Source: an uncultured Bacteroides sp. (lineage in GTDB: Bacteria > Bacteroidota > Bacteroidia > Bacteroidales > Bacteroidaceae). From it: DNA of 64,000 nt. Within the stretch, counting starts at the first letter, position 1. Every line of letters begins with the position of its first letter. Location of the stretch: NCBI GenBank assembly GCA_946628545.1, contig CAMOWU010000004.1, positions 1 to 64,000 of the forward strand, written 5' to 3'. A program made the translations under genes and the position numbers. The notes beneath the pieces were generated by a model. It was given only the letters and a program-made list of their open reading frames with translations. It did not search any database and was not told the origin of the DNA. Below are positions 262 through 20,547 of this stretch, one piece after another.

Positions 262-3200
262 CTACATTTTAATCTCGTATAAGGTGTTGTTGTAGATGAT
301 GGCGCAGAGATTTTCTGAAATCACATTCACCCGCATATCCTTATTGATGCTGAAAGCACGGCCTTCTATCTTGATGCTGTCAACATCTGCTTTGATTTCG
401 CCTCTCTCTACTGTCACCAGGTCTTGACCGTCCTTAGTGAACCAGATGGTTTTTCTCGAAGCCTTGAATTCGATGCTGATGCCTCCAATCACCATGTCTT
501 TTTCCACACTGATTTTCTTCATCTTTGTCGTTGGTGTTGTGGTTGTCCCTTTCTCGTTCTCTTCTTCGATTCTTGGTTTTCCCCTTCTTCTCATTTCCTC
601 AACAGAATAGTTCTTGTAGTATTCTCGGCATTTCTTATTGAAAAGATTTGCATTGCCGAAGGAGTAGAAGTAGAGTGCTCTGTTGTGGAAATAATCTACA
701 ACTGCTGGAACTTTGACGAACCGCTGGTTCTTGGCAAGGGTATCATACCGTTTGGCCGTTTCTACTGATTCTTCACCGATAGCTTCCCAAATATAGGTGA
801 CGATCTTGATGGCGTATATATCAATTCTAGGTCTCTCCATAATTGTATGGAGTGCTCTCTCTTGCAAGTCGATAGAATTCTCCATAAAATGAGTGGAAGT
901 TGTTTTATTGGTGTATTCCCGTCGCTTGATGTCGAATTTATAGATCAATTTGGCCAATTCGAAGAAGTCGTCGTAATTGTCGATATCGCATTTCTTTCCG
1001 CCCAGTGCTATCTTGACGAACCATACAGCGTCTTCTCTGTCGAGTATGGAACACAGGTTCTTCACGTTGAAGTCCTTTCCGATTTCTTTCACAATTTTCG
1101 CATAGGTGCATCTTGGTGCGTATTCGAGATTGATGATCTGTTTGCGCAGCTTGAAGTAGTTGATCAACTTCTGTGAAAAGTTGATATTACCGTTGATCAA
1201 TTTGCTGTAGAATTGCATGGCAGCAGTGTAGTCATACTCATACTTGTCAGTGCCCTCTTTAGGAGTGTAGGGAGTGGCGTACTCATAGATTCTGCACAAA
1301 GTGACAAATTCCTCAAATTGGTTGTCCTTTACCTTCTTGTAGGTGTGGATTTTTCTGTCTGTGAAATCACGTAGTCTGTCCTTGATGCGGTCAAGATCTG
1401 CTACTTCGAACTGGCATCCAGAATCCTTGAAATAGATGTTTCTAGTTTGGTTGAATCTGAAGTCCAGTTTACTGAATTCGTTGCTTGAGAATATTCGTAT
1501 GATGGTGTCTGCATACTTGTTGGCGTTGGCAAAGTTGTAGCCAGGCTGATTGAAGAGGACATCGAGGAAACAGGAAGCCAGCGAGTTGTAGTAGTGTTTC
1601 TTCAGTGCATTGCTGATGGCCTCGGCGACACTATTCAAGTTGACGTCGTTTTTCATCACTCGGTAGCCACCGTTGTCTCTCAGTCTCATGAAATAGATCC
1701 AGCAATCGTAGCTGAGACTGAAGATTTTGTCAAAGACTTCCTGAGGGATGATATTGTTGAAGAAGTCTGAGTCATAGCCTTTGAGCGGATTCTCCACCCA
1801 TGTGACGAACGATTCTTCGCTGAAGTCGTCGAGTACGAAAGATTGCAGGAACTGAATAGGGTCGGCATTGCGCAGCTGGTTGAGCTTGTTGTCCGAGTTT
1901 ATCGGATAGTTCAAGGCCTGCTTGAAAGTAGCGGGTTTGCACAGGAGGTTGAAGATGATTCGTTTGGCCCTGTCGTCGAACGTGTCAGCCAAGGCAGGAT
2001 CGGCAAAGTCTTTCAGAATCTCATTGCCTTTTCCTCCTTTCGACATCCAGAAGACCTTTTCGGATAGATCCTGAGCCATCACTTCTTTAGCCGCATAGTA
2101 CGACTTATGTTCTGTCTTTTCGAGTGAATCCCATTTTTGAATGGCTTTGTCGTACTTCTTGTTTCTGAAATACAATTCGGCAATGGTGTCGTTGAGGAAA
2201 GAGAATCCCTGTTGAGTCAGTTTTTCCAGGAACTCGCAGACCACGTGTATGTCGTCCTCGCTGACTTTCTGTGCGTCGGCTTTAATCTTGATCACCACAT
2301 TCCGCCATGTCTCGTTGGTGTTGCGTATTTCGTCGGTGTTGCGTATTATGTCAGCGAATTCAGCCAAAGGAATTCTGCTCTTCATATACTTCGACACCAA
2401 TTTCTGCAGTTCCACATTGCCATAGAGCTCCAGTTCGTCCCAACACATACCGGCCCAGTAAGCCTTTGCAGCCTCTTCGTTGTTGTAGAGGTTGAGGAAT
2501 TTGTCGCCTGCTTCCTTGAAATTCTTGCGGAAGAGGAGCACATAGGCCTTGCAGACTTCCGCTTCATTTCCTTGTCCTCCTTCCTCGAAATAACCAGCGG
2601 CTTTGTTCATGTCTTTTGGGTCTTGGCTGAGCATGGCGTCAGCTTTGAGTCTCTTTGCTGTTTCCAAAGGATCGAAATTTTCCTCAAGTCGTCGTAGAAA
2701 CTCATCCCTGTTGCCAAATTCAATGCCGCCGACCTTGTTCTTCCACGCCTCTCCATCTTGGCGTGTGGCTATGAGTTGGTTGACGAAGGCATTGTCGAAG
2801 AAATAATTCCAGAATTTGTTGTAGTTTTCCTCGGTATCTACGATATAGAGCACTTCTTTTGTTCTGGAAACCGCGATATACAGTTTTGTGAAGAAGTGGG
2901 CAAGTTCGTATTTGTCCGACTCCCTGTCAATCTCCTCCTCATTGACGATTTTTGTGAAGCAGTCAGGCAGATTGTCGGCAAACTTATAGAGGATCACCGC
3001 TTTGAACTCCAGTCCCTTTGATGAGATGGCGGTATAGAGTTTGGTCTTGTTGTCGATGGCGAGCAGCAACGGGTCGTCAATGCTGGTACTTTCGTCGGTC
3101 AGGTTGTTGTCGTCAAGGTTTTTCTCGTATTCACCGTCGTCACCGGTGATGATGCATTCCGTTTTCTCAAATCCCCTTTTGATGAGGTTCTCGTCCTGTT

Positions 3201-5085
3201 CGGATCTGAGGTAGAAGAAGCCAGGTAGTGGGTTGGCTTGTGGGTTCCACTGTTCCTGTGGATTCACTACATCATCAGAAAGGAAGCTTTTGCGGATATA
3301 CTGTATGGAGTTGGCGAATTCCACGATGGTCTTCTTCGACCTGTAGTTGTTGTTGAGCAATTGTTCCCGGAGGCTGATGTGCGTGCCTATCTGTTCGATG
3401 AATGATCTGTCGAAGATTTCCTTCAGTCTTGTCCAGCTGAATCCCGTGGGGCTGACAGTCTGGTTGGGGTCGCCAGCGTATGCAATGGGTATTTTCCTGT
3501 AGTCCTGCAGGTCGTATTCCGTGTATTTTGAAAGGCTCAAGATCAGTTTGTTTTCTATGGGCGTGAAGTCCTGTGCCTCATCGCAGTAGATGATGTCGTA
3601 TTTTTGCTGAGAGGGATTCTTCTCCAGTTTCTGGAGCACGTATCTCACCAGATCCAAGTCATCCCAATATTCTTCGTGGTACTGTTCGTAGTACCAGTTT
3701 TTCCAAATCCTGTAGATGTTCTCGTAGTCTTTGGAACTGATGGTTCTGTCGGAGGCATAGAGATTGTCATAATCTTGTATGTAGAAGAATTTCTGGTGGT
3801 CGCGTCCTTTGATGAATGTTCGGATAATCGACCATACGATTGCTGCTTTGTAGGACTTGGCTTCCGCCAGTTTGCAGTCACTCTCGTATTTCTTTTGAAA
3901 AAGGTCGTAGCTGATGTGACGTGCGGTGGCGAAACGCTGTATTTCCTCTTCGGTTTCGATGAAGTTGTTGATGAGGAAGTCTCTGAAAGGGCAGAAGCAT
4001 TTGTCGAGTTTCTTCTCTTCCTCATCCGTCAGGTTGAATTGATGATACGACGGGTTCTTTCTGAGCAACGCCTTGACCACGTTCCTTGCTTTATCCACGA
4101 GTTTGATGGAGTAGCTGATGAAAAGCATGTCCATAGGTGTTTGTCTTACCGACTTGTAGGAGTAGGCGTGGGCAAACAGGTAGTAGAGGATAGTGGATTT
4201 TCCGCTTCCGGCCAGTCCGTTGATGAAATACGGGTAGGGAGTGTTGTTGAGCACTTCTATTTCCTCGTCCGAAAGAGCGAGGTTGGCGTCGTCATCGTTT
4301 TCCAGATTTTTCCAATCTTCAAACTCTCCATATAGGATCCAGTCAGGGAATCCCCTCTTGGCTTGCTTCAGGAGTCTGATATCTGTAAGGTCACGGTATT
4401 TATTCTCCAGAGCGAGCAAATCAATCTTCAAAGCAAGGTCAAAGAAATAATAGTAGGTGTGATCATCTTTATTCTGTATTCTCAGGGCAATTTCCTTGCC
4501 GTTGGAGAAATGTTCCAGTATCCACCCTTTCTTGTTGGGCTCGGCATGTTGCTTCTCAATCACAATACGTTGCACAGCCTCAAAGAGCAGACGGCGGTCG
4601 TCTTCGAAATCACGGCTGCCGAAATGGTTGCACCACTCCTCCATCTCAAAGACATAGGTTGTGGAAGTGTTGGAGAAGTCGCGTTGGTTCTCGATGTCTC
4701 TCAACTCCAAGGGCAAAGCCGGCTTCGACTCGACCTCAATCATCTCTTGGAACTTGCTTTCAATTTCCTCCAGTTCCCTGGCGTTGTACCTACATCTTTG
4801 CAGCTGAGTTTTCTCATCCAATTTGAGAAACTCAGAGTAATCATCGTGCCTCTTGAAATATTTTCTCGGCACATAGAGGACATTTTCTATGCCCTCTCGT
4901 TCTTCTTCAAAGAAGAGGATGCGTGGATAAGCATCCGTGTTGAATTTTTTGAAGAAGATTTTGGAATGTGAATAGCGGTGGAGCGAGTTGACGTCGGGGG
5001 CATCTAGAAACTTCTTGGCGAAAGGTGGCCATTCCGTCTTGTCGATCCGCTCAAAATCCGTTGTAATGAATATTTGTTTTTCCAT
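262..5085 (-). CDS. Very large UvrD/Rep-like SF1 helicase with helical-repeat C-terminal half
   Basis: Predicted SF1 DNA/RNA helicase of 1607 aa. Walker A (GLAGSGKST, near residue 290), motif II (DEAQD, near 500), a motif V-like SSKGLEFKAVILY and motif VI (AVSRTKE, near 738) are all visible. The first 270 residues and the region from about 820 to 1480 match nothing I know. The latter is helical and TPR-like at its start, with alternating Ala/Tyr/Glu-rich helices such as AAGYFEEGGQGNEAEVCKAY. The last 75 residues look beta-rich. I chose ATG 5085 over a TTG three codons upstream. It lies 175 nt after the preceding gene of the cluster, so it may have its own promoter. Helicases of this size with TPR-like tails recur in accessory and defence loci, but no specific role can be assigned here. 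Confidence 0.85.
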   Translation of the reverse strand: MEKQIFITTDFERIDKTEWPPFAKKFLDAPDVNSLHRYSHSKIFFKKFNTDAYPRILFFEEEREGIENVLYVPRKYFKRHDDYSEFLKLDEKTQLQRCRYNARELEEIESKFQEMIEVESKPALPLELRDIENQRDFSNTSTTYVFEMEEWCNHFGSRDFEDDRRLLFEAVQRIVIEKQHAEPNKKGWILEHFSNGKEIALRIQNKDDHTYYYFFDLALKIDLLALENKYRDLTDIRLLKQAKRGFPDWILYGEFEDWKNLENDDDANLALSDEEIEVLNNTPYPYFINGLAGSGKSTILYYLFAHAYSYKSVRQTPMDMLFISYSIKLVDKARNVVKALLRKNPSYHQFNLTDEEEKKLDKCFCPFRDFLINNFIETEEEIQRFATARHISYDLFQKKYESDCKLAEAKSYKAAIVWSIIRTFIKGRDHQKFFYIQDYDNLYASDRTISSKDYENIYRIWKNWYYEQYHEEYWDDLDLVRYVLQKLEKNPSQQKYDIIYCDEAQDFTPIENKLILSLSKYTEYDLQDYRKIPIAYAGDPNQTVSPTGFSWTRLKEIFDRSFIEQIGTHISLREQLLNNNYRSKKTIVEFANSIQYIRKSFLSDDVVNPQEQWNPQANPLPGFFYLRSEQDENLIKRGFEKTECIITGDDGEYEKNLDDNNLTDESTSIDDPLLLAIDNKTKLYTAISSKGLEFKAVILYKFADNLPDCFTKIVNEEEIDRESDKYELAHFFTKLYIAVSRTKEVLYIVDTEENYNKFWNYFFDNAFVNQLIATRQDGEAWKNKVGGIEFGNRDEFLRRLEENFDPLETAKRLKADAMLSQDPKDMNKAAGYFEEGGQGNEAEVCKAYVLLFRKNFKEAGDKFLNLYNNEEAAKAYWAGMCWDELELYGNVELQKLVSKYMKSRIPLAEFADIIRNTDEIRNTNETWRNVVIKIKADAQKVSEDDIHVVCEFLEKLTQQGFSFLNDTIAELYFRNKKYDKAIQKWDSLEKTEHKSYYAAKEVMAQDLSEKVFWMSKGGKGNEILKDFADPALADTFDDRAKRIIFNLLCKPATFKQALNYPINSDNKLNQLRNADPIQFLQSFVLDDFSEESFVTWVENPLKGYDSDFFNNIIPQEVFDKIFSLSYDCWIYFMRLRDNGGYRVMKNDVNLNSVAEAISNALKKHYYNSLASCFLDVLFNQPGYNFANANKYADTIIRIFSSNEFSKLDFRFNQTRNIYFKDSGCQFEVADLDRIKDRLRDFTDRKIHTYKKVKDNQFEEFVTLCRIYEYATPYTPKEGTDKYEYDYTAAMQFYSKLINGNINFSQKLINYFKLRKQIINLEYAPRCTYAKIVKEIGKDFNVKNLCSILDREDAVWFVKIALGGKKCDIDNYDDFFELAKLIYKFDIKRREYTNKTTSTHFMENSIDLQERALHTIMERPRIDIYAIKIVTYIWEAIGEESVETAKRYDTLAKNQRFVKVPAVVDYFHNRALYFYSFGNANLFNKKCREYYKNYSVEEMRRRGKPRIEEENEKGTTTTPTTKMKKISVEKDMVIGGISIEFKASRKTIWFTKDGQDLVTVERGEIKADVDSIKIEGRAFSINKDMRVNVISENLCAIIYNNTLYEIKM

Positions 5086-5260
5086 AATCAACAAATATTA
5101 AGTTGTTAAGTTTAAGGTTAAAAATACGATTTTTTTTGTCGCTCGTCTTTCGGTTCCCCTAGTAATAGAGTGTGTTCCTATACCGTGTGTCTCCGAAACA
5201 CCCTTTTAAAGTAAAGATAGCAAATAGGAGAATTTCCTATCACGTAGGAAGAGAATAACG
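5086..5260 (-). promoter_or_regulatory. Longest gap in the cluster: possible terminator/promoter before the helicase
   Basis: On the minus strand this spacer begins with a small hairpin (TTCCTA/TAGGAA). It then has TATCTTTA, one mismatch from the Bacteroidetes -7 element TAnnTTTG, and a second small stem around GTGTTTCGGAGACAC. It could allow separate control of the helicase. The match is weak. Confidence 0.3.
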
Positions 5261-6751
5261 TCAATTTAACATGTAGTCATCCAGTTCTGAGGTTGTATGA
5301 ATGATTTCTTCCTCTGGTACACCAACAAATCTGCATAAAGCGATACTTCCCGCTAATCTTTTGTTCAAATCAGGGTTTAAGGCCGCCTCAATCAAACCGC
5401 CAAGTTGTTGATAATAGTCATCGATTCTCTTAAGTATCGCCTGACATTCTTTATTTAAGTTCTCTACCAAAAGGTTGAAGTCTCTTTTCATTTTCTCGAT
5501 GAAAGCCTTTTCTTTCTCACCCATTATATGTTTAGAGATCATCAAGACTGATTTGGAAACGGCAGAACCTACTATTGCACCTAAGATAGGAATGGGAATT
5601 ACAGTCTGTCCTATGGCGGAACCGATTGCTATCAAACCTGCTTCCACACTTAAGGAACACGCAGCATCTCCATACTCTGATTCACTGATTTTGCCGTTCT
5701 TGAAATCATAATATAACGAAGCAAGTCCCATCGTCGAACTAACGATAGCGCTGGCAAAAGGAGCGCTGATACCGACAACCTTTGTAAGACCATATATGCC
5801 CAAACTAGAAACACCTCCTTTAATTGACCCTTTGGAAAAATCATATCCCACATCTTTCCAATCATCCAAAGAGAATTGTGTGATAGCCTTGCCACTCTTG
5901 ATTTTTGCGTATATTTTTATTGCACCAGATGTCGCACCTGTGATAGCGGCACCTATGGCACTATATTTCAATGCTTCTCCCCATGATGCATCTGTGATAT
6001 GCTGGGCTTGTTCCAAGTTTTCTTGTTTCTCTTGGCGGACATCATCAATTTTCTTATCGGTTGTACTGTGGAATTCTTTCTCATAACCATCAAGCGTAGA
6101 ATCAATCCTTCCCAATTGAACCTCATTATATGTAGATACTCCTGGACGTACAACCTCACCAAACGATTTTCCTGTTTCGTTCTCAATCAAGCGGATGGTT
6201 TCCTGGCATTTTCTGATGGTTTTTGAGGATATATCGGCTAAATGGTCACCGTTATATATTTTTTCTAATATTTCGTATTGGTCTTTGGGAATGTGATAAT
6301 ATCCATTATCGGTAAAACCAGGATATTTATGTAGGTGTTCAATTACATGGTCGAGGCTTTTACTCACTCCATTGATGTATTTTGACTGTACTTCTACCCC
6401 ATTAATAATATAATCCTCAGGAGCTGTTCTACCAACACCCTCAAAAGTAGCGGCGGGTTTGATTCCATTAAGAATATCTCGTGCGTTACGGATTTCGACT
6501 TCTACATGTTCAGCGATTTCTCCATGTTTGGTGCCCATACTGCCAAGGATGCCATTAGGATTAGAAGCAAAATCTCGTACGTTTTCTACGCATTGGAGAC
6601 TCTCGGATAATGCAGTCCGGGCATACTCCTCCTTCTCGAAAGCAGTTTGAATGATTTCAGCCATTTTCTCTGCTTTCGTAATTTCTGATTGGTCGATGCC
6701 TTCTTTGATTAAGGCACCGACCAATTGGTCTGTATAGATATTTGAGCGCAT
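5261..6751 (-). CDS. Glycine-zipper membrane protein with a possible nuclease-like motif
   Basis: This 496-aa protein belongs to no family I can name with certainty. Residues 1-250 are soluble and helical. Residues about 256-400 hold three Gly/Ala-rich hydrophobic stretches (for example SAIGAAITGATSGAIKIY and FASAIVSSTMGLASLYY) typical of membrane-inserting glycine zippers. The soluble part includes PEDYIINGVEVQSK (111-124), whose D113 with Q122-x-K124 spacing recalls the D...(E/Q)xK core of PD-(D/E)XK nucleases. This is a weak resemblance only. It starts 1 nt after the upstream glycine-zipper gene, so the two are surely co-transcribed. A role as membrane effector or anchor of the cluster is inference. 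Confidence 0.8.
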   Translation of the reverse strand: MRSNIYTDQLVGALIKEGIDQSEITKAEKMAEIIQTAFEKEEYARTALSESLQCVENVRDFASNPNGILGSMGTKHGEIAEHVEVEIRNARDILNGIKPAATFEGVGRTAPEDYIINGVEVQSKYINGVSKSLDHVIEHLHKYPGFTDNGYYHIPKDQYEILEKIYNGDHLADISSKTIRKCQETIRLIENETGKSFGEVVRPGVSTYNEVQLGRIDSTLDGYEKEFHSTTDKKIDDVRQEKQENLEQAQHITDASWGEALKYSAIGAAITGATSGAIKIYAKIKSGKAITQFSLDDWKDVGYDFSKGSIKGGVSSLGIYGLTKVVGISAPFASAIVSSTMGLASLYYDFKNGKISESEYGDAACSLSVEAGLIAIGSAIGQTVIPIPILGAIVGSAVSKSVLMISKHIMGEKEKAFIEKMKRDFNLLVENLNKECQAILKRIDDYYQQLGGLIEAALNPDLNKRLAGSIALCRFVGVPEEEIIHTTSELDDYMLN

Positions 6752-6752
6752 A

Positions 6753-7589
6753 TCAGGATACTCTCTTGTTGATCAACTCTCCCATGGATTTTACATTGTT
6801 GACCAAAGATGCAAGTTCTTTTTTCTGTTTTTCATTGAAAGAAAGATAGTCTTTGGGGAAGGTATTCACCATTAATGAGATATTCAGACTGGGTTTTAAT
6901 TTCTCTGTATTTTCATACAATCTGATCAGTTCTGCCAGTTTTGGGGTGAGTTTAGCTATATCCTTTCGTATCTCTTGTGCGATTTCATTGGCCTTCTCGG
7001 CTGCCTTTTTGTTCTTGTAGTAAGCAAAAAAACCACCGCCCAAGATAGCAACACCAGCTACTGCCCAACCTACAGGACCAGCCATAGCAAGGAATGCTGA
7101 TCCTGCGCTCATGCCACCACCACCTGCAGCCAAAGCACCACCTCCAAGCCAAGCAAGAGCGGCATTAGTCGCTGCTGCACCAGATAAGGATGCTATAGCC
7201 GTTCCTGTAGAGGCAGTACCAAAAGTAGTTGCCACAGCCATTGCTGCTGTTGGTCCCAATGCAGCTATAGCACTACCAGCGGCTACTCCGCTTCCTGCCA
7301 TTCCTGCTCCCTTGATATTATCCGATGCATTCTGTTTCTCTATCTCAACAGCTTGGACAAATTCGCTAAGAGATAATTTCACATTAGAAATCTCTTTAGC
7401 AAACTCTTTTGGAGAAGAGGCCAAGCTGTTGATATATGCTTCCACTCTATCAATAGCCTTAACTGCAGATTTCCTGGTTTCAAAGAGTTTGAGCGCATAA
7501 TCATTTGCTGATTCGCCAAGTCTGTTATATTCGGCTTCTGTACTTTTCAAAAGTTCAATCGCCTCTTTTTTTGCATTATTGTAGAACAT
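6753..7589 (-). CDS. Gly/Ala-rich membrane-inserting protein
   Basis: 278-aa protein. Residues 1-92 are amphipathic helices. Residues about 94-190 form an extreme Gly/Ala-rich hydrophobic tract (motifs GTASTGTAIASLSGAAATN, WLGGGALAAGGGG, AGPVGWAVAGVAILGGG), followed by a Lys-rich stop (YYKNKKAAEK) and a helical tail. This glycine-zipper module occurs in many accessory-locus membrane proteins and in pore-forming peptides. There is no signal peptide, so insertion from the cytoplasm is likely. It sits directly behind the Hsp70 gene (40-nt gap) and 1 nt before the second membrane gene. The pair could be the membrane target or effector of the chaperone core (inference). Confidence 0.8.
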   Translation of the reverse strand: MFYNNAKKEAIELLKSTEAEYNRLGESANDYALKLFETRKSAVKAIDRVEAYINSLASSPKEFAKEISNVKLSLSEFVQAVEIEKQNASDNIKGAGMAGSGVAAGSAIAALGPTAAMAVATTFGTASTGTAIASLSGAAATNAALAWLGGGALAAGGGGMSAGSAFLAMAGPVGWAVAGVAILGGGFFAYYKNKKAAEKANEIAQEIRKDIAKLTPKLAELIRLYENTEKLKPSLNISLMVNTFPKDYLSFNEKQKKELASLVNNVKSMGELINKRVS

Positions 7590-7629: not shown

Positions 7630-9264
7630 TTATAGCTTTTTTAAGTCGTTTGCACCACTCTGTTCCTCATCCATCAAATTGATGGTCTTGATAATTTGCT
7701 CTCTTACTTTATCACTGACTGAAGGATGAACGGTGTCGATATAATGTGATTCCTTATGTTGTCCGTCTGAGGAAACTGTAATCGAGATACGTCCGTCTCT
7801 GTCGCGGGCAACTTCGAATACTACTTCTGTATTATCTGTTACAGCGTTTGGGTTATCAAACTCATAACGTTTGTCATAAATCTTATTGACATTGTATTCT
7901 CTCCTATTGGTAGCAGTGTCAGGAAGACGTTCTTCTTCGCTATTGTTCTCATAGACATCTACTCTGACACCTTTCTGCCCCGCATTCACCTTATATGTGA
8001 ATGTACCATTCTTTATCATGGGATCCGTACTTTTGATCATGTTGTGAATGACTTCCTGATCATAGTATTTCGCAGATGTTCCGTAGGAATGGGATGACTT
8101 CTCTTTGATATGGGCTTGACCTGTTTCAAGCAAATAAGCGTAGATGGCAGCACCCTTTGCAATGGCATTCTCTGGATCTCCAATGGGGAACCAACTGTTT
8201 TCTGCTTTCCCATCTCCAATCAATGGACCAAGCTCTTTGGCGAGTGCGGCTCTAATCATTGGCATATTGGAAGAGCCGCCAGCAAGTATACATCTGTCAA
8301 TATGTTCGTTACGGCTAATACATTTCTCGACAGCTGTCTTGACCACTTTGATACAGTCTTTGACCATCTTCTTCGTGACCCTTTCAAAATCCGCACGTGT
8401 AATATTGGTGGAATAATCAAGAAGATATCCAAAAGAAGTCTCAAATGAATCTGTCAATTCTATTTTGTCTTTTTCACCTTCTTTGCGAAGATTCCCCTCT
8501 TTGGCTATACCACTCTCCGACTTGTCGTTTTTGTCTCTGTTTAGATTTGCTCCTTCTGATTCGCTATTGATTTGGTCTATAGCCAAATCAATGAGTTTGT
8601 CATCCCAGTCTTGCCCGCCGACATATCTGCCAAGTACATCAAAATCACTGGATGATTCCAGAATCTCGTATGTCCCATTTTGTTTTTTCACAATGCTCAC
8701 ATCAAGAGTACCACCTCCGAAATCAAAGACAAGAACCGTTTCTCCATCTGCGATATTGTAACTGATAGCGGCAGCGGTAGGTTCATGTATCAAACCTAAC
8801 ACTTCTATTCCCGCCAACTCTGCAGCGGCCTTTGAACAATCGCGTTGTTTATTGGTAAAACCAGCGGGAATGGTCACGACAGCCTTTTTGATAACTGGCA
8901 AATTCAGTGACAATTGTTTTTCATTTGCGCTCTTAAGAAGAGAATGTAACACACAAGCGGAGCATTCCACAGGCGACACTTCTTCTTCCTTACCATTACG
9001 AATGATAGAATGGCTGCACTTATCCTGCCCCATGTTGCGCTTAAATAAAGACAGAACTTGATGAGCATGTTTTTTTACGGCCATATTTCCCTTTGCCACA
9101 GATCCAACTATGGGTTTACCTGTATTCCTGTCGAAGAATACCACAGAAGGCATTACAGTACCACCCAAAACTGCTCCCTTGGGTTTTATGACGTCAAGAT
9201 GGCTACCATCGTATTTAGCTATACAAGAATAGGTGGTTCCTAAGTCAATACCATATACTTCCAT
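7630..9264 (-). CDS. Hsp70-family (DnaK-like) chaperone dedicated to the cluster
   Basis: 544-aa Hsp70 homologue. The ATPase domain is complete: GIDLGTTYS (5-13, phosphate 1), EPTAAAISY (161-169), FDFGGGTLDVS (180-190, phosphate 2), GGQDWDD (216-222), ILAGGSS (326-332, adenosine) and DPENAIAKGAA (363-373). Residues about 385-544 form a beta-rich substrate-binding-like region. The roughly 100-residue alpha-helical lid of DnaK (about 640 aa) is missing or very short. Two adjacent upstream genes carry a GrpE-like C-terminal domain, and no DnaJ is present. Its place between exchange factors and membrane proteins suggests a specialised chaperone, not the housekeeping DnaK. Confidence 0.93.
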   Translation of the reverse strand: MEVYGIDLGTTYSCIAKYDGSHLDVIKPKGAVLGGTVMPSVVFFDRNTGKPIVGSVAKGNMAVKKHAHQVLSLFKRNMGQDKCSHSIIRNGKEEEVSPVECSACVLHSLLKSANEKQLSLNLPVIKKAVVTIPAGFTNKQRDCSKAAAELAGIEVLGLIHEPTAAAISYNIADGETVLVFDFGGGTLDVSIVKKQNGTYEILESSSDFDVLGRYVGGQDWDDKLIDLAIDQINSESEGANLNRDKNDKSESGIAKEGNLRKEGEKDKIELTDSFETSFGYLLDYSTNITRADFERVTKKMVKDCIKVVKTAVEKCISRNEHIDRCILAGGSSNMPMIRAALAKELGPLIGDGKAENSWFPIGDPENAIAKGAAIYAYLLETGQAHIKEKSSHSYGTSAKYYDQEVIHNMIKSTDPMIKNGTFTYKVNAGQKGVRVDVYENNSEEERLPDTATNRREYNVNKIYDKRYEFDNPNAVTDNTEVVFEVARDRDGRISITVSSDGQHKESHYIDTVHPSVSDKVREQIIKTINLMDEEQSGANDLKKL

Positions 9265-9303
9265 ACATTTTATTTTTTTGATAATTATTATCCATTCGCC
9301 TTT

Positions 9304-10002
9304 CTATTCGTTTACTCCTTCATATTCATAAAGAATTACCTCTTCTTTACTGATAATCAGAGGTTTAATGTTGTTTTCCCCCCTCCAATAGAATAGTGGA
9401 ACTACAGAAGTGGCTACAGTACCGTCCTCATCTTTATTTGAAGTTGACCATGGTTTGAAATCCCTACATACTTCCATTCGCTCAGCATCGAATGGAGTAC
9501 CCATTGGCGATTCTTCATTTTCTATTCCTACTCTACTCAATTGCTGCTTGATGATATTCAAAATATTATTATATTTTTTGCTCTCCGATTCTTCTTTTTT
9601 ACTACCCTCAAAGGCAATTTTACGATAGACATACATGTGTGTATTGAGAATCTTGTCTTTGATCAGTTTATGATAGAAATCGTTCTTATAAGCAGTCAAC
9701 TCATCTTGTAATGTTTGGAAGATAGCCATGCCGTTATTCTGTTGGATAAGCGACAATACGTTGGCATGAATGTTGTGGATATTGCTGTCTATCGATTCTA
9801 ACGTTGAAGTTTTTTGAACGATCAAGTCAAGTTTGTTTTCTATAGCAGTCAACCTTTTTTTCAGGCCATCTACATCCTTTGAAATACTTGTCAGCATTTC
9901 TTCGATTGGATTCAGTTCGTTTTCAAGCATCAATGCATAATAGAATGCCTCAGGTCTTTTGATTTCACAAGAGCGTCCTTTATTGTCTATAAATCTTGCC
10001 AT
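9304..10002 (-). CDS. Coiled-coil protein with GrpE-like C-terminal domain (copy 1)
   Basis: 232 aa. A helical/coiled-coil region (about 28-125) precedes a short beta-rich end starting near residue 168: GTPFDAERMEV, then DGTVATSVVPLFYW and KEEVILYEYE. The order (P-F-D...ME-V, a DGTV turn, then a terminal strand) resembles the beta-wing of GrpE, the Hsp70 nucleotide-exchange factor, where the pattern is G.pFDp..HEAV...GtV......R.A.V.V. The next gene has the same end. It lies 38 nt upstream of the Hsp70 gene. Exchange-factor function is inferred from this resemblance plus linkage; full-length GrpE identity is not claimed. Confidence 0.6.
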   Translation of the reverse strand: MARFIDNKGRSCEIKRPEAFYYALMLENELNPIEEMLTSISKDVDGLKKRLTAIENKLDLIVQKTSTLESIDSNIHNIHANVLSLIQQNNGMAIFQTLQDELTAYKNDFYHKLIKDKILNTHMYVYRKIAFEGSKKEESESKKYNNILNIIKQQLSRVGIENEESPMGTPFDAERMEVCRDFKPWSTSNKDEDGTVATSVVPLFYWRGENNIKPLIISKEEVILYEYEGVNE

Positions 10003-10014
10003 GATGTAAGATAT

Positions 10015-10638
10015 TTATTCTGATAATTCATATAATATCACCTCAGCCTTCTTGAGCATGATTTGACCCTCCTGGCTATTATAGGTAGGTTGGAAGTAGA
10101 ATACAGGAGTAATTACTTTCGCAACTTTGCCATCAAGTGCTTCTTTGTCCGTTGGGATGGTAGGGAGAAAACCATTTGCTTCCATTTTTTCTGCGTCCAA
10201 TTCGACGTTGGTATCCACTGGAAAACTGACGATTCCCAACGATCTCATCTTGCTAAGAATCAGTTTCTGAAGATTCTTCAATTGATCAGAATCGCCTTTG
10301 ATATACAGCTCTTGACCTATTTTTGTATAAGTGTCGATAAATGCGTCCCAATAGCGTTTGGGATTAGTGTTTTGTTGTAACTCTTCTACTTTCGGACCTA
10401 CCTCTGAATATAAAGGTACAATCTTTTCCTCTCGTTGTGATGGTGTAGAGGCGTTGTTTTCGCTTTTTATGTTGATAGTGACCTGCATTGTGTCGTCATC
10501 AACGACCATATTCCCGATTTCCTCACCTTGGAGGAAGATGTGTACGTTGGTCGATAGCAAACGCCTCAAAGAGGCTCTGCAACTGTTGGAAACACGTCTC
10601 CACCAACTTGTTTCTGTTTGAATATCAGTGTGTTGCAT
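10015..10638 (-). CDS. GrpE-like C-terminal domain protein (copy 2)
   Basis: 207 aa, paralogous at its end to the following gene. Residues 141-207 contain NVELDAEKMEA, DGKVAKVITPVFYF and KKAEVILYELSE, which align with GTPFDAERMEV, DGTVATSVVPLFYW and SKEEVILYEYE there. The first 100 residues are different, with an Arg-rich start and an acidic middle, so the two proteins may hand the Hsp70 different clients. It is separated by 12 nt from copy 1 and 9 nt from the FHA-like gene upstream. Confidence 0.6.
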   Translation of the reverse strand: MQHTDIQTETSWWRRVSNSCRASLRRLLSTNVHIFLQGEEIGNMVVDDDTMQVTINIKSENNASTPSQREEKIVPLYSEVGPKVEELQQNTNPKRYWDAFIDTYTKIGQELYIKGDSDQLKNLQKLILSKMRSLGIVSFPVDTNVELDAEKMEANGFLPTIPTDKEALDGKVAKVITPVFYFQPTYNSQEGQIMLKKAEVILYELSE

Positions 10639-10647
10639 ATAATAGTT

Positions 10648-11487
10648 CTATTTAACTTTTTCAATGAATATAAGACGAAGGTCTCCAATTATAATAATGT
10701 CTCCGTTTGTAAGTGTTATTTCCTTAGGTGATTTGTTTTCTGGATAATTAATACTCCATTCACCTTTGTTCAATATAGCTTTGTGTGGTTTTTTTATCTT
10801 ATCCTGGATACTTGATTCTATGATGAAATGTTCATTTTGCAGTTTTTCCTCAGAGCAGACGATTCTACATGTCTGGGTGTCTTCCTGTTTAGTTGGAGAC
10901 TTCCCAATAATTGTTCTTCCTACCATGATAGGATATACACTGTTAATCTCATCTTCCTCTTGCTGAACTAGATAACCTATCAGTTCTGCATTGCATGGAG
11001 CCGAAGTAGGTGATGGACTATTTTTTCTTTTTTCCAATTCCTTTCTCAACTGATTGATTCGCGCATTGAGTTCGCCAATCTTCCCATCCTTATCCTTCTC
11101 TATCTGTTTCTTCGCCTCTTCCAGTTGCTTTTTGTCTTCTTCCAATGTTTTGGCGTTGCTTTGAAGAGATTCTATTTCAGCATTCAGTTGAGCGATTTGG
11201 CCTTCCTTCTCGCCAATAGTCTTATTAGCCTCTTCGGTTTTCTTGTTAGCTTCCTCAACATGATTGGCCAACTTCTCTTTCTCCTTGTTAAGTGATTCTA
11301 TCTTCTCATCTTTTTTCAGAAAGATGTTCCACCTTTCCTTTGCGTCATCTATTCGCTGTTGCTCCTCTTCTTGCAAAGCATCTGGAAGAGGTGCAAGCAC
11401 TCGTCTTACGGGGAATCCGCAAGTCTTACAATAGTTCCCTGTGATGTTCGAATCACATACAGGACATTTGATTTGTCGATCTTCCAT
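10648..11487 (-). CDS. Zinc-ribbon / coiled-coil / FHA-like protein
   Basis: 279 aa in three parts. An N-terminal zinc ribbon has C8-x2-C11 and C20-x2-C23 (CPVC...CKTC). A long charged coiled coil follows (about 45-155, rich in E, K, Q and L heptads). The C-terminal domain, about 165-279, has the FHA feel: VGRTIIGKS near its start, then NEHFIIES in place of the usual S..H, and the terminal strands LTNGDIIIIGDLRLIFIE. FHA domains bind phosphothreonine, but the canonical Arg/Ser/His set is not cleanly visible, so binding is uncertain. It is probably an adaptor in the cluster; the next gene downstream begins after 9 nt. Confidence 0.7.
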   Translation of the reverse strand: MEDRQIKCPVCDSNITGNYCKTCGFPVRRVLAPLPDALQEEEQQRIDDAKERWNIFLKKDEKIESLNKEKEKLANHVEEANKKTEEANKTIGEKEGQIAQLNAEIESLQSNAKTLEEDKKQLEEAKKQIEKDKDGKIGELNARINQLRKELEKRKNSPSPTSAPCNAELIGYLVQQEEDEINSVYPIMVGRTIIGKSPTKQEDTQTCRIVCSEEKLQNEHFIIESSIQDKIKKPHKAILNKGEWSINYPENKSPKEITLTNGDIIIIGDLRLIFIEKVK

Positions 11488-11498
11488 ATTCTTAATCG

Positions 11499-14198
11499 TT
11501 ATAGTTGATTGTCTTTGAATTTTGATATTCCAGACTCTATATCCTCAAATGAAATTACATTGTTGAAGAAATCTCTCTCAATGCAGTTGCTTTTATGAGC
11601 CTGTATGATCTTGTCCGCCACATTTCTTGCCCATCGACCATTTCCGTCGTTACGCTCCATGGTTTTATGTGCTTCGTTTACAAATACACTGATATGTTCT
11701 TTCGCCTCTTGAGATAGTTGATACCCCTTGGCGGCAATGATGCCCATTAGTATGGTCTTGAGTTCGTCTGCATTATAATCCTCAAAATGGACGAAAGTGT
11801 TGAACCGTGATTTCAGTCCAGGGTTTCTGTCCAAGAACGGTTGCATCAACTCTTCGTATCCGGCTATAATAACCACCATCTCATTTCTGTATTTCTCCAT
11901 ACATTGAATCAGCGTGTCTATAGCTTCTTTACCAAAAGAGTCGTTATCATCCTTGACAAGTGAGTACACCTCATCAATGAAAAGCACACCACCTTTTGCA
12001 TGTTCGCAAACATGCGCTACATTCTTAGCCGTTTGCCCGACAATATTGGATACCAATTCTTGTCTGCTGACATCTCTCACATATCGATTAGGAAGGATGC
12101 CCAACTCATGTAGAATTCCAGCCATCAAATTCGCCACAGTAGTCTTACCCGTACCGGGATTGCCATAGAAAACCATGTGTCCCATTGGAATGTCATCTAC
12201 TGGCTGACCTTCCTGTTGGGCTTTGATATCAAATTTTACTTGTTTAATCAAGTCGTCAATTTCTCTTTTCACTTTCGATAGACCTACCAACCTATGTAGT
12301 TGATCGATTGGACTAACCTTTTCTTTCTTCTGCTTTCCTGGTATGAAATCTTTTAGTTCTTCCATATCTAAGCCATCGAAATCACTTGGTTGTAAGCAAG
12401 ATATATCGCTGTCTTTCTGACGTGCGGCAACTTTGCTTTCCACTTTTTCAAACAGATTGCGCACCCAACGTCCGTTGCCGAATTTGTAGAGACCTTTTGT
12501 ACCTTGAATAGGATCAGTTTTAGCTGTACGAGCTTCGTCTTGATCGTATCGCTCCTCTTTATATTCTACTACATATTCCATCATCTGCGAAAGCAGTTTG
12601 TCCACTTCTTCAGGAATAGTGTAACTCTTTCTTGCCGACAATAAGAATATCTGTTTCAATTCTTCTGCATTGTAATCCTCGAAATATATTTCGTTAGGGA
12701 TACGGCTCTTCAAACCTTCGTTCATGTCATAGAGACGTTTCATTTCGTTTTCATATCCTGCAAGGATGACAACAAGTCTGTCTCGATAGTTCTCCATACA
12801 AGCAAGAAGCGTATTGACCGCCTCATGACCGAAATCATTCGATCCACCATCTGCCAATCTATAGGCTTCATCAATGAAAAGCACACCATCGAGAGCGGAT
12901 TCTATCACCTGTCGGGTTTTGATGGCAGTTTGACCGACATAACCAGCAACAAGATGTTCGCGTGAAACTTCAACAAGATGTCCTTTCTTAATGAGACCAA
13001 GGTCTTTTAGAATGCGTGCGACAATACGAGCTACAGTGGTCTTTCCCGTACCTGGATTGCCGTAGAAGACCATGTGTTTGTTGAATGTTGAAACCTCCTT
13101 GCCCTGTTCGCGTTTCATTTCCAATAGTTCTCTGTATGACTGGATTTGCTTCTTGACAGCTTCCAATCCTATCAGTTCTGTCAACTCGTCAAGAGCCTTT
13201 CCCCTCTTTTCAACGCCATCAGACTCGAACGCATTGTAATCATATCTTTTTTTCTTTTTCATAATTGCAATGGTTTCATCCAAAGTGATATAGTTCCCTT
13301 CTTTGAATCCTTTCATAGAAAGTTGGTCACAAATATCTTCTATATTCAACCAATCAATCTCTTTTTGCAAACCATTATACTCAATACGTGCATACTCCAT
13401 TGCCCTGAGTATATCGGAAGTTTGTGGCGAAGAAATGGCAAATGTGTTTTTCTCATTAAGCGTTTCTGAGTCATTATCTCCATCCTTTATAGTTCTTGTA
13501 AAAACATTGCGAAAGTATGTGCTCGTAAAAGCAGAATTATTCAGTTGTTTAAAGATCTTCGTCAATTCATTACGATTGCTGGTGCAATCAAACAAGACAA
13601 TGAGTTTGTTATCGTTACTCTTATGATTTTTTATATCGTTCAAGCGTTCTGATAAGGATTGACTTTGAGTTTGGTCGAACTCAGGAACATTCTCTGTTGC
13701 GGTGACGATGATGGCACAATGCTGTTTTTCGCGAAGATTATAATCAAATTCCCTTAGGTTGGCATCTCTGTTACCTTTACTTTTCGTCTTGAAACGGCCA
13801 TAATCATCCTGTGTGATGTTGTCACGTTGGTCGTTTACCATCATATTCTCAGGAACCTGTGAATTGTCTTTTCTTATCCGAGTGTAACGCGGCTTTCCAA
13901 AAGAATGACCTACTGGCGATGCGTTCAACTCAATTGCATGATTGTCGATCTCTTTATTTTTGGAAGGTGAACCTGCTTCAGACAAGAATTGGCCTAACAT
14001 GTCCTGATTGTAAGAGTAAAAGCCATTAGTTGTGTTAAAGAACACTATTATCTGATAACCTTGTTCTTTCAAGTATAAGTGCAACGCTTGCTCAAGGTTG
14101 TACAATCTCAGTCCTTTGTCTATATAATGATCGTCGTAATGAAATATGCCAGTGATTAATCCGCGATCCTTGATGTTTAGGGCATTAAGTCTATCCAT
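11499..14198 (-). CDS. Tandem CbxX/CfqX-type AAA+ ATPase
   Basis: 899 aa with an unfamiliar N-terminal region (1-330) and two complete AAA+ modules of the CbxX/CfqX class (relatives are Rubisco activase CbbX and the T7SS ATPase EccA). Module 1 has Walker A GNPGTGKTTV (near 376) and Walker B LFIDEAYRL (near 438). Module 2 has GNPGTGKTTV (near 677) and LFIDEVYSL (near 738). Both have sensor/arginine-type motifs (NEGLKSRIPNEIYFEDY and RNPGLKSRFNTFVHFEDY). Two active rings suggest a protein-remodelling machine that could thread or disassemble a complex. It sits between the coiled-coil pair and the FHA-like gene; the 165-nt gap upstream holds a small transposon-like element. Confidence 0.93.
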   Translation of the reverse strand: MDRLNALNIKDRGLITGIFHYDDHYIDKGLRLYNLEQALHLYLKEQGYQIIVFFNTTNGFYSYNQDMLGQFLSEAGSPSKNKEIDNHAIELNASPVGHSFGKPRYTRIRKDNSQVPENMMVNDQRDNITQDDYGRFKTKSKGNRDANLREFDYNLREKQHCAIIVTATENVPEFDQTQSQSLSERLNDIKNHKSNDNKLIVLFDCTSNRNELTKIFKQLNNSAFTSTYFRNVFTRTIKDGDNDSETLNEKNTFAISSPQTSDILRAMEYARIEYNGLQKEIDWLNIEDICDQLSMKGFKEGNYITLDETIAIMKKKKRYDYNAFESDGVEKRGKALDELTELIGLEAVKKQIQSYRELLEMKREQGKEVSTFNKHMVFYGNPGTGKTTVARIVARILKDLGLIKKGHLVEVSREHLVAGYVGQTAIKTRQVIESALDGVLFIDEAYRLADGGSNDFGHEAVNTLLACMENYRDRLVVILAGYENEMKRLYDMNEGLKSRIPNEIYFEDYNAEELKQIFLLSARKSYTIPEEVDKLLSQMMEYVVEYKEERYDQDEARTAKTDPIQGTKGLYKFGNGRWVRNLFEKVESKVAARQKDSDISCLQPSDFDGLDMEELKDFIPGKQKKEKVSPIDQLHRLVGLSKVKREIDDLIKQVKFDIKAQQEGQPVDDIPMGHMVFYGNPGTGKTTVANLMAGILHELGILPNRYVRDVSRQELVSNIVGQTAKNVAHVCEHAKGGVLFIDEVYSLVKDDNDSFGKEAIDTLIQCMEKYRNEMVVIIAGYEELMQPFLDRNPGLKSRFNTFVHFEDYNADELKTILMGIIAAKGYQLSQEAKEHISVFVNEAHKTMERNDGNGRWARNVADKIIQAHKSNCIERDFFNNVISFEDIESGISKFKDNQL

Positions 14199-15700: not shown

Positions 15701-17056
15701 TTATTGATAAGTTTCCCATGCTCGTAATTCAGAGGGAAGACAGATGGGTTCCCCCTTTGGCGTGAATTCAATTTGTTGAACAACACATGGATTCTGCTCT
15801 TTATTGGTCTTATTGATGCTGAATACAATACCGTTCTCGCTTAATTGATACTGAAGTTGTTGCTCAAAATTTTCAAAAGATTTCTCATCCTCATAGTCAC
15901 CTAAGCTAATCTGATGATAGATGACAGATTGCGTTTGAGAGACAGGACTGAATACTAACCTTATCCGCCTGTTCGTGCAGTGATTTTCCATTTCAATGAC
16001 GTAGGCATGACGCTTGTCATTTCCGTCATATCCTAATGCTTTTAGTTCGAAATGAAATTCCTCATAGAGGATCTGGGCTGCTATTTCAGCAAGTTGTTGG
16101 CATTCTTCAGAAACTTTGCAGCGATTGAAGACACCTTGGACAATTTCTTCACCCTGTTCCTTAATCTTCTGTAAGTTTTCAAAGTCATCTTGTAGTTGGT
16201 CGATTTCGTACCCCTCCATGAACTCACCTTTCTGAATACGCTCATAGATGGTTGTAGCGTTCCTCATCACTTCGCTAAAGTCATTGTCTGACCAATAGTC
16301 CATATCGACCTTGTTCTGCTTTGCCTCGTCGAAATAAGTATTATCGCGCCATTGTTCAAATTGTTCAATGATATGCTCTGCTTCGGGTTTGACCAGTAGC
16401 AGAGCGGTTAAGAATTCGGCCTTCTTACGGGTGACGTTCTTTTGTATAGCCTGTACATCGGTTAAAACTTGGATAGCTAATGCTTGTTGTGCCTCATAAG
16501 CTAATGGTTTTTCTCCCATATCATTCAGGAGCTGACGGAGTTTTTCTATTTTCGCTCTTTCAAATTTGATGCAATAACGGTCATCTGCAACATTGTTGTA
16601 TGCGTTAACTGCTTCGTTTCTGTATTTGAGGGCAAGTTCTCGGTTCAACTTTCTATTTTGCTTGATTTCCTCAATCTTTACGTCCAGTTCTCGTTGGGTT
16701 TCCTCCATCTCATTCAATTGGGAACGTAAATGGTTGATCGACTCCTTGAGCTGAGAATAGACAGCCTCTCGTTCTTTCATCTTTTCAACCAAATTATCAT
16801 ATTCCTCAAGAATACGTTGAATATATCGCCCATAGTCTTTTCTATCATTGTCCCATGCCTCAATGATTTTATTGAGCAACTTTGTCAGTTCCTCAGGGCT
16901 GGCGATGGTCGGGTGCTTCTCATAGTACTTAAGTTCTCTTTCCAGTTCCTCCAATGCGCCATTTTCCACCCAGACATAGTCATTTTCATGTGGATCCCAC
17001 CCACCATAAAGGTGTCTGTTGTATTTTCTTTCTTCCTCGCTGATATTCTTTCTCAT
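15701..17056 (-). CDS. Coiled-coil protein, paralogue of the gene at 14364
   Basis: 451 aa. Coiled-coil from about 35 to 190 (REAVYSQLKESINHLRSQLN and similar), then DMDYWSDNDFSEVM near 250. The alpha/beta C-terminal part has HAYVIEMENH, RIRLVFSPVS and LQYQLSENGIVFS. Domain order is shared with its downstream neighbour at 14364. It starts 4 nt after the radical-SAM stop, so the two are probably translationally coupled. Function unknown. Confidence 0.75.
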   Translation of the reverse strand: MRKNISEEERKYNRHLYGGWDPHENDYVWVENGALEELERELKYYEKHPTIASPEELTKLLNKIIEAWDNDRKDYGRYIQRILEEYDNLVEKMKEREAVYSQLKESINHLRSQLNEMEETQRELDVKIEEIKQNRKLNRELALKYRNEAVNAYNNVADDRYCIKFERAKIEKLRQLLNDMGEKPLAYEAQQALAIQVLTDVQAIQKNVTRKKAEFLTALLLVKPEAEHIIEQFEQWRDNTYFDEAKQNKVDMDYWSDNDFSEVMRNATTIYERIQKGEFMEGYEIDQLQDDFENLQKIKEQGEEIVQGVFNRCKVSEECQQLAEIAAQILYEEFHFELKALGYDGNDKRHAYVIEMENHCTNRRIRLVFSPVSQTQSVIYHQISLGDYEDEKSFENFEQQLQYQLSENGIVFSINKTNKEQNPCVVQQIEFTPKGEPICLPSELRAWETYQ

Positions 17057-17060
17057 GTGT

Positions 17061-17633
17061 TTAATTGTTTTGTCGAGTAGCTATGCCAATAGTCAGCAAC
17101 TCGTTTGGATTCAACAAATGTATTTCGCGTTTTCGTTCGCCTTTTGTCAATTCTTCTTGAAAGGATAATAATCTGTCGCTCAGGAATATCAATCGTTGGT
17201 TTTCAGACCCCCTAAGTCCAATGTTATCGTAATTGAGTTCATCAATGTATTCTCCATCAATTAGAAGGTCAATTTGTCGAAGTAATCTTAACGATTTCTC
17301 ATCAGTAATCTCCTCTATCTGAAATCCTGTAAACAAGATGACTGTCAAATCAGGCTTCTGAGAGAGAATGATGTCAAGTAGTTCTGTCAAAGCCTCCGCT
17401 TGTAGAAGAGGTTCACCTCCAGAGATAGTTATACCATCAATCTGAGGAGTGTCGAGAATTTCTTTCGCTAAATCTGAGCATGACACTTCAGCTCCTCCTT
17501 CTTCAGACTGCAGCTCTGGTGCAGTGCATCGATAGCACCTTCTTCGACATCCTTGTACCCAAATCACGAATCTACGACCGGGACCCAGCACTGTTGTGTT
17601 CTTCCATCGATAGCCTATCCTCAGTTTCATCAT
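17061..17633 (-). CDS. Small radical-SAM activating enzyme (NrdG/PflA-like)
   Basis: 190 aa. The cluster motif C29-x3-C33-x2-C36 (GCRRRCYRC) binds the SAM-coordinating [4Fe-4S] centre. GISGGEPLL-type motif II lies near 70-77 (TISGGEPLLQ), followed by DLTVILFTGF. There is no SPASM or auxiliary-cluster extension. The size matches activases such as NrdG, yet no glycyl-radical enzyme is nearby. It therefore probably acts on a protein or peptide of this cluster, and the Ser/Gly-rich 65-aa product at 19115 is one candidate. It overlaps the coiled-coil gene upstream by 62 nt. The N-terminal Gly-Pro-Gly (LGPGRR) typical of this family supports the start. Confidence 0.88.
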   Translation of the reverse strand: MMKLRIGYRWKNTTVLGPGRRFVIWVQGCRRRCYRCTAPELQSEEGGAEVSCSDLAKEILDTPQIDGITISGGEPLLQAEALTELLDIILSQKPDLTVILFTGFQIEEITDEKSLRLLRQIDLLIDGEYIDELNYDNIGLRGSENQRLIFLSDRLLSFQEELTKGERKREIHLLNPNELLTIGIATRQNN

Positions 17634-18072
17634 TTGGCTTTTGGTCTTTCTCTATATCTTTGAACGATCTTTTATTCCGTTTCTTGACAGCCTCGGCAAG
17701 ACGTTTTTCCATTGCGTTCAACCTCTCCCGTATTTCGTTCTTCTCTTTACTGATGGCATCTTCAGTACCTAATTCACATATCCCCTCGATTATCTCCTCA
17801 TAAAGTTCTAATTGCACTTTAAGCGAATGGATGGCGTCTTGTGTCAGTTGTTGACATTTCTCATACTCTTCTTTGAATCTTTTTTCCAAGTCACTCTGAC
17901 TGAATTCGGTTAATGCTATTGAGGCATATTCGGCAATTTTCAGAGTGCTGATTATCGCGCGGAGTAGATCCTTCTCTTCTTTAATCTTGTTCACAACATC
18001 TTCTATTCTCTCTATACGTTGTTTCAAGTCAATGTTTTCCTGTAGAATTTGTTGTATGATGTCCTTTTCCAT
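17572..18072 (-). CDS. Short coiled-coil protein
   Basis: 166 aa from ATG 18072, which I prefer over an ATG 15 codons upstream because it leaves the usual 14-nt gap after the preceding stop instead of an overlap. The start reads MEKDIIQQILQENIDLKQ. The whole chain is charged helix with heptads (QRIERIEDVVNKIKEE, EIRERLNAMEKRLAEAVKKR) and has no recognisable enzyme motif. Its 3' end runs 62 nt into the radical-SAM gene. Confidence 0.65.
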   Translation of the reverse strand: MEKDIIQQILQENIDLKQRIERIEDVVNKIKEEKDLLRAIISTLKIAEYASIALTEFSQSDLEKRFKEEYEKCQQLTQDAIHSLKVQLELYEEIIEGICELGTEDAISKEKNEIRERLNAMEKRLAEAVKKRNKRSFKDIEKDQKPNDETEDRLSMEEHNSAGSRS

Positions 18073-18086
18073 ATTATAATATATAG

Positions 18087-20540: not shown

Positions 20541-20547
20541 TTTTATT

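What the first reader, a model, noticed from the sequence alone, without database searches (positions are those of the whole stretch)
7630..10638. Hsp70 with two different GrpE-like partners and no DnaJ
Seen: the two upstream genes share a C-terminal beta-rich block (ELDAEKME / PFDAERME; DGKVAKVI / DGTVATSV; EVILYE in both). They differ in their N-terminal halves. Known: GrpE's beta-wing has a like order and is the Hsp70 exchange element. Inferred: two exchange factors with different targeting parts could switch one Hsp70 between clients.
Basis: partly seen in the sequence, partly recalled or inferred. Interest (0 to 1): 0.75.

Follow-up and report, generated by a model that had tools for sequence, protein, structure and literature searches.

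The report
Hsp70 with two divergent GrpE partners
A gut-type bacterium carries, inside a likely phage-defence island, a stripped-down chaperone (Hsp70) with two private copies of its 'reset' helper GrpE and no 'trigger' helper DnaJ; relatives show the pairing is real and recurrent, while having two copies is special to this genome.

Summary
Genes A (10015-10638) and B (9304-10002) share a C-terminal block (33% identity over 104 aa). They sit just 5' of an Hsp70 (7630-9264), and no J-domain gene lies in the window.

The GrpE reading is supported, but only after relatives were found. Pfam and NCBIfam see nothing credible in A or B. Six further loci in the same taxonomic family carry one homologue each, always directly upstream of an Hsp70. 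One of these passes Pfam's GrpE cut-off (29.6 vs 25.8 bits). The eight-sequence profile matches GrpE at HHalign probability 95% and E 3e-8, over stalk, bundle and beta-wing.

The seven Hsp70s are ATPase-competent by sequence, lidless, and lack R167 and the VLLLD linker that J-domains use. Their GrpE-signature hairpin is shortened.

Four loci, the window included, place the pair at the end of a radical-SAM / coiled-coil / double-AAA+ / zinc-ribbon operon. The same operon elsewhere, also in this genome, instead ends in vWA-PP2C-kinase.

Two GrpE-like genes occur only here (1 of 7 loci), so this looks like a local duplication. 'Switching between clients' is untested. AlphaFold models were too poor to use.

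Verdict: a new variant of the known Hsp70-GrpE modules of prokaryotic conflict systems.

The parts
10015..10638 (-). GrpE-like protein A (207 aa): unrelated N-terminal part (about 1-100) and GrpE-type C-terminal domain (about 116-207)
   Evidence: no Pfam/NCBIfam hit
9304..10002 (-). GrpE-like protein B (232 aa): long helix (about 17-88), helical bundle, beta-wing (about 158-232); co-linear with the single GrpE-like protein of L120
   Evidence: helices only, low confidence; rank 1 of 764 against GrpE profile
7630..9264 (-). Hsp70, 544 aa: complete ATPase domain, divergent SBD-beta, no alpha-helical lid, no VLLLD linker, R167 to G, shortened GrpE-signature hairpin
10648..11487 (-). Zinc ribbon + coiled coil + C-terminal FHA-like domain (FHA is inference; no Pfam FHA hit)
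11499..14198 (-). Double AAA+ ATPase of SpoVK/EccA/CbbX type
   Evidence: TIGR02881 448 bits, TIGR03922 424 bits
14364..15671 (-). Coiled-coil protein, paralogue of the next
15701..17056 (-). Coiled-coil protein
17061..17633 (-). NrdG-like radical-SAM protein; best family marker of the operon
17572..18117 (-). Small coiled-coil protein
18087..19022 (-). First gene of the operon (311 aa); possible very degenerate Hsp70 C-lobe/SBD relative (weak)
   Evidence: E 0.008, prob 5%; shuffles max 19.4 vs 29.4
6753..7589 (-). PDC-M09A, component of a PADLOC phage-defence candidate (glycine-rich membrane segment); neighbouring module, not part of the Hsp70 pair
   Evidence: E 4e-104
5261..6751 (-). PDC-M09B, second component of the neighbouring module
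   Evidence: E 4e-170
262..5094 (-). 1610-aa protein with UvrD-type helicase region, 167 bp behind PDC-M09B

Best explanation
The two proteins are divergent GrpE-family nucleotide exchange factors dedicated to the adjacent Hsp70. This Hsp70 is a J-independent, lidless, ATPase-competent variant. It and its exchange factor form a regulatory cassette at the end of an operon whose core is a hexamer-forming double AAA+ ATPase with coiled-coil, zinc-ribbon/FHA-like and radical-SAM partners. Proposed cycle: Hsp70-ATP binds an exposed segment of an operon partner or a foreign protein through its open SBD-beta, hydrolyses slowly without a J-protein, and is reset when the GrpE beta-wing levers lobe IIB open, so the exchange factor sets how long the complex stays closed. 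In the window the exchange factor was duplicated. B keeps the long helical stalk and is the ancestral-type copy; A keeps only the exchange domain on a new N-terminal half and most likely pairs with B as an asymmetric dimer or serves as a second input. Shown: homology, gene order, residue losses, recurrence. Inferred: exchange activity, J-independence, defence role, the A/B arrangement.
For: GrpE homology; Pfam GrpE above cut-off for the L133 member and below cut-off for L132 and L134, linked to the others by BLASTP. In all seven loci the GrpE-like gene lies directly 5' of an Hsp70. Hsp70: catalytic K70, E171, D194, T199, D201 kept in 7 of 7; R167 and the hydrophobic linker lost in 7 of 7; no lid; K55 and E267 kept, R56 lost, IIB hairpin 23-28 residues against 33 in DnaK. 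No J domain in any of the seven loci. Seven Hsp70s split from DnaK with 100/100 support (long branches). R167/D393 role in J-domain action: PMC7289447. GrpE-signature and salt bridges: PMC8215388. Island: GC 0.40 against 0.51 for the rest of the window, next to PDC-M09A/B.
Against: The shortened GrpE-signature hairpin is what marks HscA/HscC as GrpE-independent (PMC8215388), so productive binding is not assured; a Rhodococcus Hsp70 with a Pfam GrpE encoded two genes downstream also has a short hairpin. R167 is also lost (Q) in a Nostoc Hsp70 that does sit beside a DnaJ gene, so its loss alone does not prove J-independence. Chromosomal DnaJ proteins exist. A alone does not stand out against GrpE (rank 192 of 764). 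No usable structure.
Confidence: 0.6

Rival explanations
1. A and B are GrpE-derived but no longer exchange nucleotide: they are scaffolds that tether the Hsp70 to the AAA+/coiled-coil complex.
For: Hsp70 IIB hairpin shortened and R56 lost; B has a long helix suited to tethering; A has lost the stalk-like N-terminus.
Against: The beta-wing, the part that acts on the ATPase domain, is the best conserved part of the family, and K55-E267 of the cleft is kept in 7 of 7.
Confidence: 0.2
2. One reading: two exchange factors with different targeting halves switch one Hsp70 between two clients.
For: Two genes with a common exchange domain and unrelated N-terminal halves.
Against: Six of seven loci have a single factor; no client or targeting domain was recognised in either half.
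Confidence: 0.12
3. The Hsp70 works with the cell's ordinary DnaJ and GrpE, and A/B do something else.
For: Chromosomal GrpE and four J-domain genes exist in the assembly.
Against: J-contact and GrpE-signature features of DnaK are lost in all seven Hsp70s, while a GrpE-like gene is always adjacent.
Confidence: 0.08
4. The shared C-terminal block is not GrpE at all; the resemblance is chance.
For: No Pfam or NCBIfam match for A or B; AlphaFold/Foldseek gave no GrpE match (low-confidence model).
Against: 0 of 300 shuffles, the top four of about 800 ORFs hit by the four-sequence profile are GrpE, Pfam GrpE above cut-off in a family member, constant position beside Hsp70.
Confidence: 0.05

Closest known systems
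GrpE (Pfam PF01025), the bacterial/mitochondrial Hsp70 nucleotide exchange factor
   Same: Order stalk - bundle - beta-wing; beta-wing motif around FDxxxxE and the following strands; position beside an Hsp70 gene
   Different: A and B fall below every curated model, A lacks a GrpE-like stalk, N-terminal lengths vary widely (49-227 aa in the family), two copies in one operon
HSP70-GrpE theme of GAP1-N2 GTPase conflict systems (Kaur et al. 2020, PMC7159879)
   Same: An Hsp70 and a GrpE in a predicted conflict operon; alternative neighbourhoods carry kinase + PP2C + vWA instead
   Different: There with DO-GTPase, GAP1 and FNIII/DnaJ proteins, mainly actinobacteria and firmicutes; here with double AAA+, radical SAM and coiled-coil proteins, no J domain, in a Bacteroidales-like genome
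Type III-A CoCoNuT extensions (PMC11090510)
   Same: Hsp70-like NBD/SBD, SpoVK-like AAA+, vWA/PP2C/kinase-zinc-ribbon (TerY-P) triads
   Different: No McrB GTPase or McrC homologue here; Hsp70 is separate and has intact catalytic residues; CoCoNuT text mentions no GrpE
HscA / HscC Hsp70 branches
   Same: Specialised Hsp70s lacking the GrpE-signature
   Different: Those work with their own J-proteins and no GrpE; this one has GrpE-like partners and no J-protein
PADLOC PDC-M09
   Same: Genes 6753-7589 and 5261-6751 are its two components
   Different: PDC-M09 occurs without the Hsp70 operon elsewhere (L015, L016, L019, L020), so it is a neighbour, not part of the finding

Membership tests
GrpE (PF01025) | Curated Pfam score for A and B | tested here: not met
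   No PF01025 hit at E<=1
GrpE (PF01025) | Curated Pfam score for a family member | tested here: met
   L133 29.6 bits against 25.8; L132 22.6 and L134 16.3 below it
GrpE (PF01025) | Profile-profile homology over stalk, bundle and beta-wing | tested here: met
   Prob 95%, E 3e-8, GrpE columns 57-209 of 231
GrpE (PF01025) | Long N-terminal helical dimerisation stalk | tested here: inconclusive
   B: predicted helix 17-88 at pLDDT about 60-75; A: no similarity to B in this part, not modelled
GrpE (PF01025) | Accelerates ADP release from its Hsp70 | not testable with these tools
   Needs biochemistry
Hsp70 (PF00012) | Complete ATPase domain with catalytic residues | tested here: met
   E 1e-62; residues kept
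DnaK subfamily | SBD-alpha lid, VLLLD linker, R167, GrpE-signature hairpin | tested here: not met
GAP1-N2 GTPase system (Kaur 2020) | DO-GTPase and GAP1 protein | tested here: not met
   No such domain among the ten operon proteins scanned with Pfam
CoCoNuT | McrB-type NxD GTPase with McrC homologue | tested here: not met
   No McrB/McrC match in the operon proteins scanned
PDC-M09 | Adjacent PDC-M09A and PDC-M09B genes | tested here: met
   E 4e-104 and 4e-170, 1 bp apart

The most novel reading that the evidence does not exclude
A lineage of Hsp70 machines that has dropped J-proteins altogether and is timed by dedicated GrpE-type exchange factors only, used as a plug-in regulatory cassette, often swapped with a vWA-phosphatase-kinase cassette, on AAA+-based bacterial defence complexes; in this genome the exchange factor has become an asymmetric A/B pair.
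Probability: 0.3. Interest if true: 0.78.

Novelty: new variant of a known kind. Interest (0 to 1): 0.56.

Why it matters
J-proteins are described as obligatory partners of Hsp70 (PMC7289447), and a specialised Hsp70 is thought to lose GrpE first and keep its J-protein (HscA, HscC; PMC8215388). Here the reverse pattern is seen in seven loci: GrpE-type partner kept, J-contact features gone. If confirmed biochemically it gives a natural system for studying an Hsp70 cycle run by nucleotide exchange alone. The operon comparison also suggests that Hsp70-GrpE and kinase-phosphatase-vWA cassettes are swapped at one position on more than one kind of conflict-system NTPase.

Tried and rejected
- Direct Pfam, NCBIfam and PDB-sequence searches with A and B: nothing credible; the PDB hits are coiled-coil noise.
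- AlphaFold of B (A+B alignment) and of the isolated C-terminal domain: mean pLDDT 53 and 52; the fold search of the latter is meaningless.
- First hits of A in other Bacteroidia (G329, G287, G337): MerR-type genes beside alaS, chance.
- Plasmid Hsp70 hits: the rows opened from Paenibacillus, Vescimonas, Streptococcus, Parabacteroides and Monoglobus are ordinary dnaK loci.
- PDC-M09 as part of the finding: rejected, it travels alone.
- IMG/VR scans for A/B and for the Hsp70: no relatives.
- Hit G1481 (E 0.008): no Hsp70 nearby, taken as chance.
- Strict either/or of Hsp70-GrpE and kinase-PP2C cassettes: rejected, L135 carries both.
- First operon gene as degenerate Hsp70: only weak support.

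Full report
Check of the observation. On the minus strand the window has A (10015-10638, 207 aa), B (9304-10002, 232 aa) and an Hsp70 (7630-9264, 544 aa), 10-40 bp apart. A and B share their last 100 residues or so at 33% identity (E about 1e-9 pairwise; E 4e-6 in a whole-genome search). Their N-terminal halves are unrelated to each other and to 887 other ORFs from the session.

Surroundings. The three genes are part of a long co-directional run in a low-GC block (about 0.40 against 0.51 beyond 22 kb). In order of transcription it reads: 311-aa first gene, small coiled coil, NrdG-like radical SAM, two paralogous coiled-coil proteins, double AAA+ ATPase (SpoVK/EccA/CbbX type), zinc-ribbon/coiled-coil/FHA-like protein, A, B, Hsp70, then PDC-M09A and PDC-M09B (PADLOC candidate defence pair, E 4e-104 and 4e-170) and a 1610-aa UvrD-like protein. 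PDC-M09 occurs alone on Klebsiella and Leptolyngbya plasmids and in other Bacteroidales contigs, so it is a neighbouring defence module.

Are A and B GrpE? No curated family matches either protein. Against a profile of 35 GrpE sequences collected here, the A+B C-terminal block scores 26.8 (E 5e-4, prob 31%) in the expected register. None of 300 column-shuffled versions reaches this, the highest being 21.2. B alone ranks first of 764 C-terminal segments, A only 192nd. The decisive step was finding relatives. The radical-SAM profile led to two more operons with an Hsp70 and a single A/B-like gene, L120 and L121. A profile of the four C-termini then found L132, L133, L134 and L135. Every one of these genes lies directly 5' of an Hsp70. 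With eight sequences the match to GrpE is prob 95%, E 3e-8, over 143 columns covering stalk, bundle and beta-wing. The L133 member is a Pfam GrpE above the curated cut-off (29.6 vs 25.8 bits); L132 and L134 match below it. BLASTP links L133 to L121, L132, L135 and L120, L120 to B, and B to A. Trimming choices do not matter. I regard GrpE homology as established (about 0.93). Structure prediction could not confirm it: both AlphaFold models are of low confidence.

What kind of Hsp70? The seven Hsp70s separate from DnaK with 100/100 support, though branches are long. All keep the catalytic residues, and all are 490-544 aa and end after SBD-beta. All have lost the (V/I)LLLD linker and the arginine equivalent to R167 (G, G, D, D, S, K, G). 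R167 and the linker aspartate are central to J-domain action (PMC7289447). No J domain is encoded in any of the seven loci, whereas the same search finds the J genes of the control plasmids. The lobe-IIB hairpin that carries the GrpE-signature is 23-28 residues instead of 33; K55 and E267 are kept, R56 is lost. Such shortening marks HscA and HscC as GrpE-independent (PMC8215388), yet here a divergent GrpE is always adjacent, and a Rhodococcus Hsp70 with a Pfam GrpE two genes downstream has a short hairpin too. The simplest reading is a co-diverged private pair. A caution: a Nostoc Hsp70 beside a DnaJ gene also lacks R167.

How it may work (inference). The Hsp70 would bind exposed segments of a partner with an open SBD-beta, hydrolyse without J-protein help, and be reset by the GrpE-type factor. 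The factor would thus be a timer on the AAA+ complex. In related operons of the same type, one of them in this very genome (G000:C28, L026), the position after the zinc-ribbon gene is taken by vWA, PP2C and (where the held sequence reaches that far) kinase-zinc-ribbon genes instead (L026, L027, L028, L053, L122; some of these assignments rest on sub-threshold Pfam scores and on gene order). Kaur et al. 2020 (PMC7159879) describe the same two alternatives in GAP1-N2 GTPase systems. The alternation is a tendency, not a rule: L135 has kinase, PP2C, GrpE-like and Hsp70 together, and L133 has the pair without the AAA+ core. A Calothrix plasmid has the same core (radical SAM 46% identical) preceded by a catalytically degenerate Hsp70.

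Two copies. Only the window has two GrpE-like genes; the six other loci have one. B is co-linear with the L120 protein from residue 68 to 225, so B looks like the ancestral-type copy and A like a duplicate with a replaced N-terminal half. GrpE acts as an asymmetric dimer on one DnaK (PMC8215388), so an A-B heterodimer is a natural possibility. Client switching by two targeting halves cannot be excluded but nothing supports it.

Novelty. Hsp70 with GrpE in conflict systems is known, and Hsp70-like domains with SpoVK-like ATPases and TerY-P triads are known from CoCoNuTs (PMC11090510). New here are a GrpE branch mostly invisible to present models, its strict pairing with J-less lidless Hsp70s, its place on a radical-SAM/AAA+ chassis, and the duplicated exchange factor. 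No description of this combination was found in the paper searches made, which cover only the open library.

Noticed in passing
window 6753-7589 and 5261-6751: PDC-M09A/B candidate phage-defence pair behind the Hsp70; in Klebsiella and Leptolyngbya plasmids and two Bacteroidales contigs it stands without this operon.
   Followed up: yes
L026 8160-20000 (own genome, contig 28): Second, paralogous operon in the same genome with vWA, PP2C and further genes in place of GrpE-like/Hsp70, and a trypsin-like domain fused to the AAA+ protein.
   Followed up: partly
window 18087-19022; L026, L027, L028, L053, L121, L122 first genes: First operon gene may be a very degenerate Hsp70 C-lobe/SBD (aligned at the GGSS motif, E 0.008); a catalytically degenerate Hsp70 precedes the same core in Calothrix.
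   Followed up: partly
L134 10053-11945: A second Hsp70-like protein (630 aa) directly follows the Hsp70 in the closest relative of the window operon.
   Followed up: no
L121 10173-11105, L132 11765-12643, L135 7681-8547: MORN-repeat proteins take the place of the FHA-like zinc-ribbon protein next to the GrpE-like gene (Pfam-tested for L121 only; the others by resemblance).
   Followed up: no
own genome: No housekeeping dnaK was found in the 90%-complete assembly (only the window Hsp70 and a weak 351-aa match), although grpE and dnaJ are there; probably an assembly gap.
   Followed up: partly
window 20200-20550: Repeats of 'attgaccattg' between the operon and the next gene.
   Followed up: no
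L053 3886-5538: First gene of this operon carries a C-terminal MIT_C (phospholipase D-like) domain, E 7e-23.
   Followed up: no
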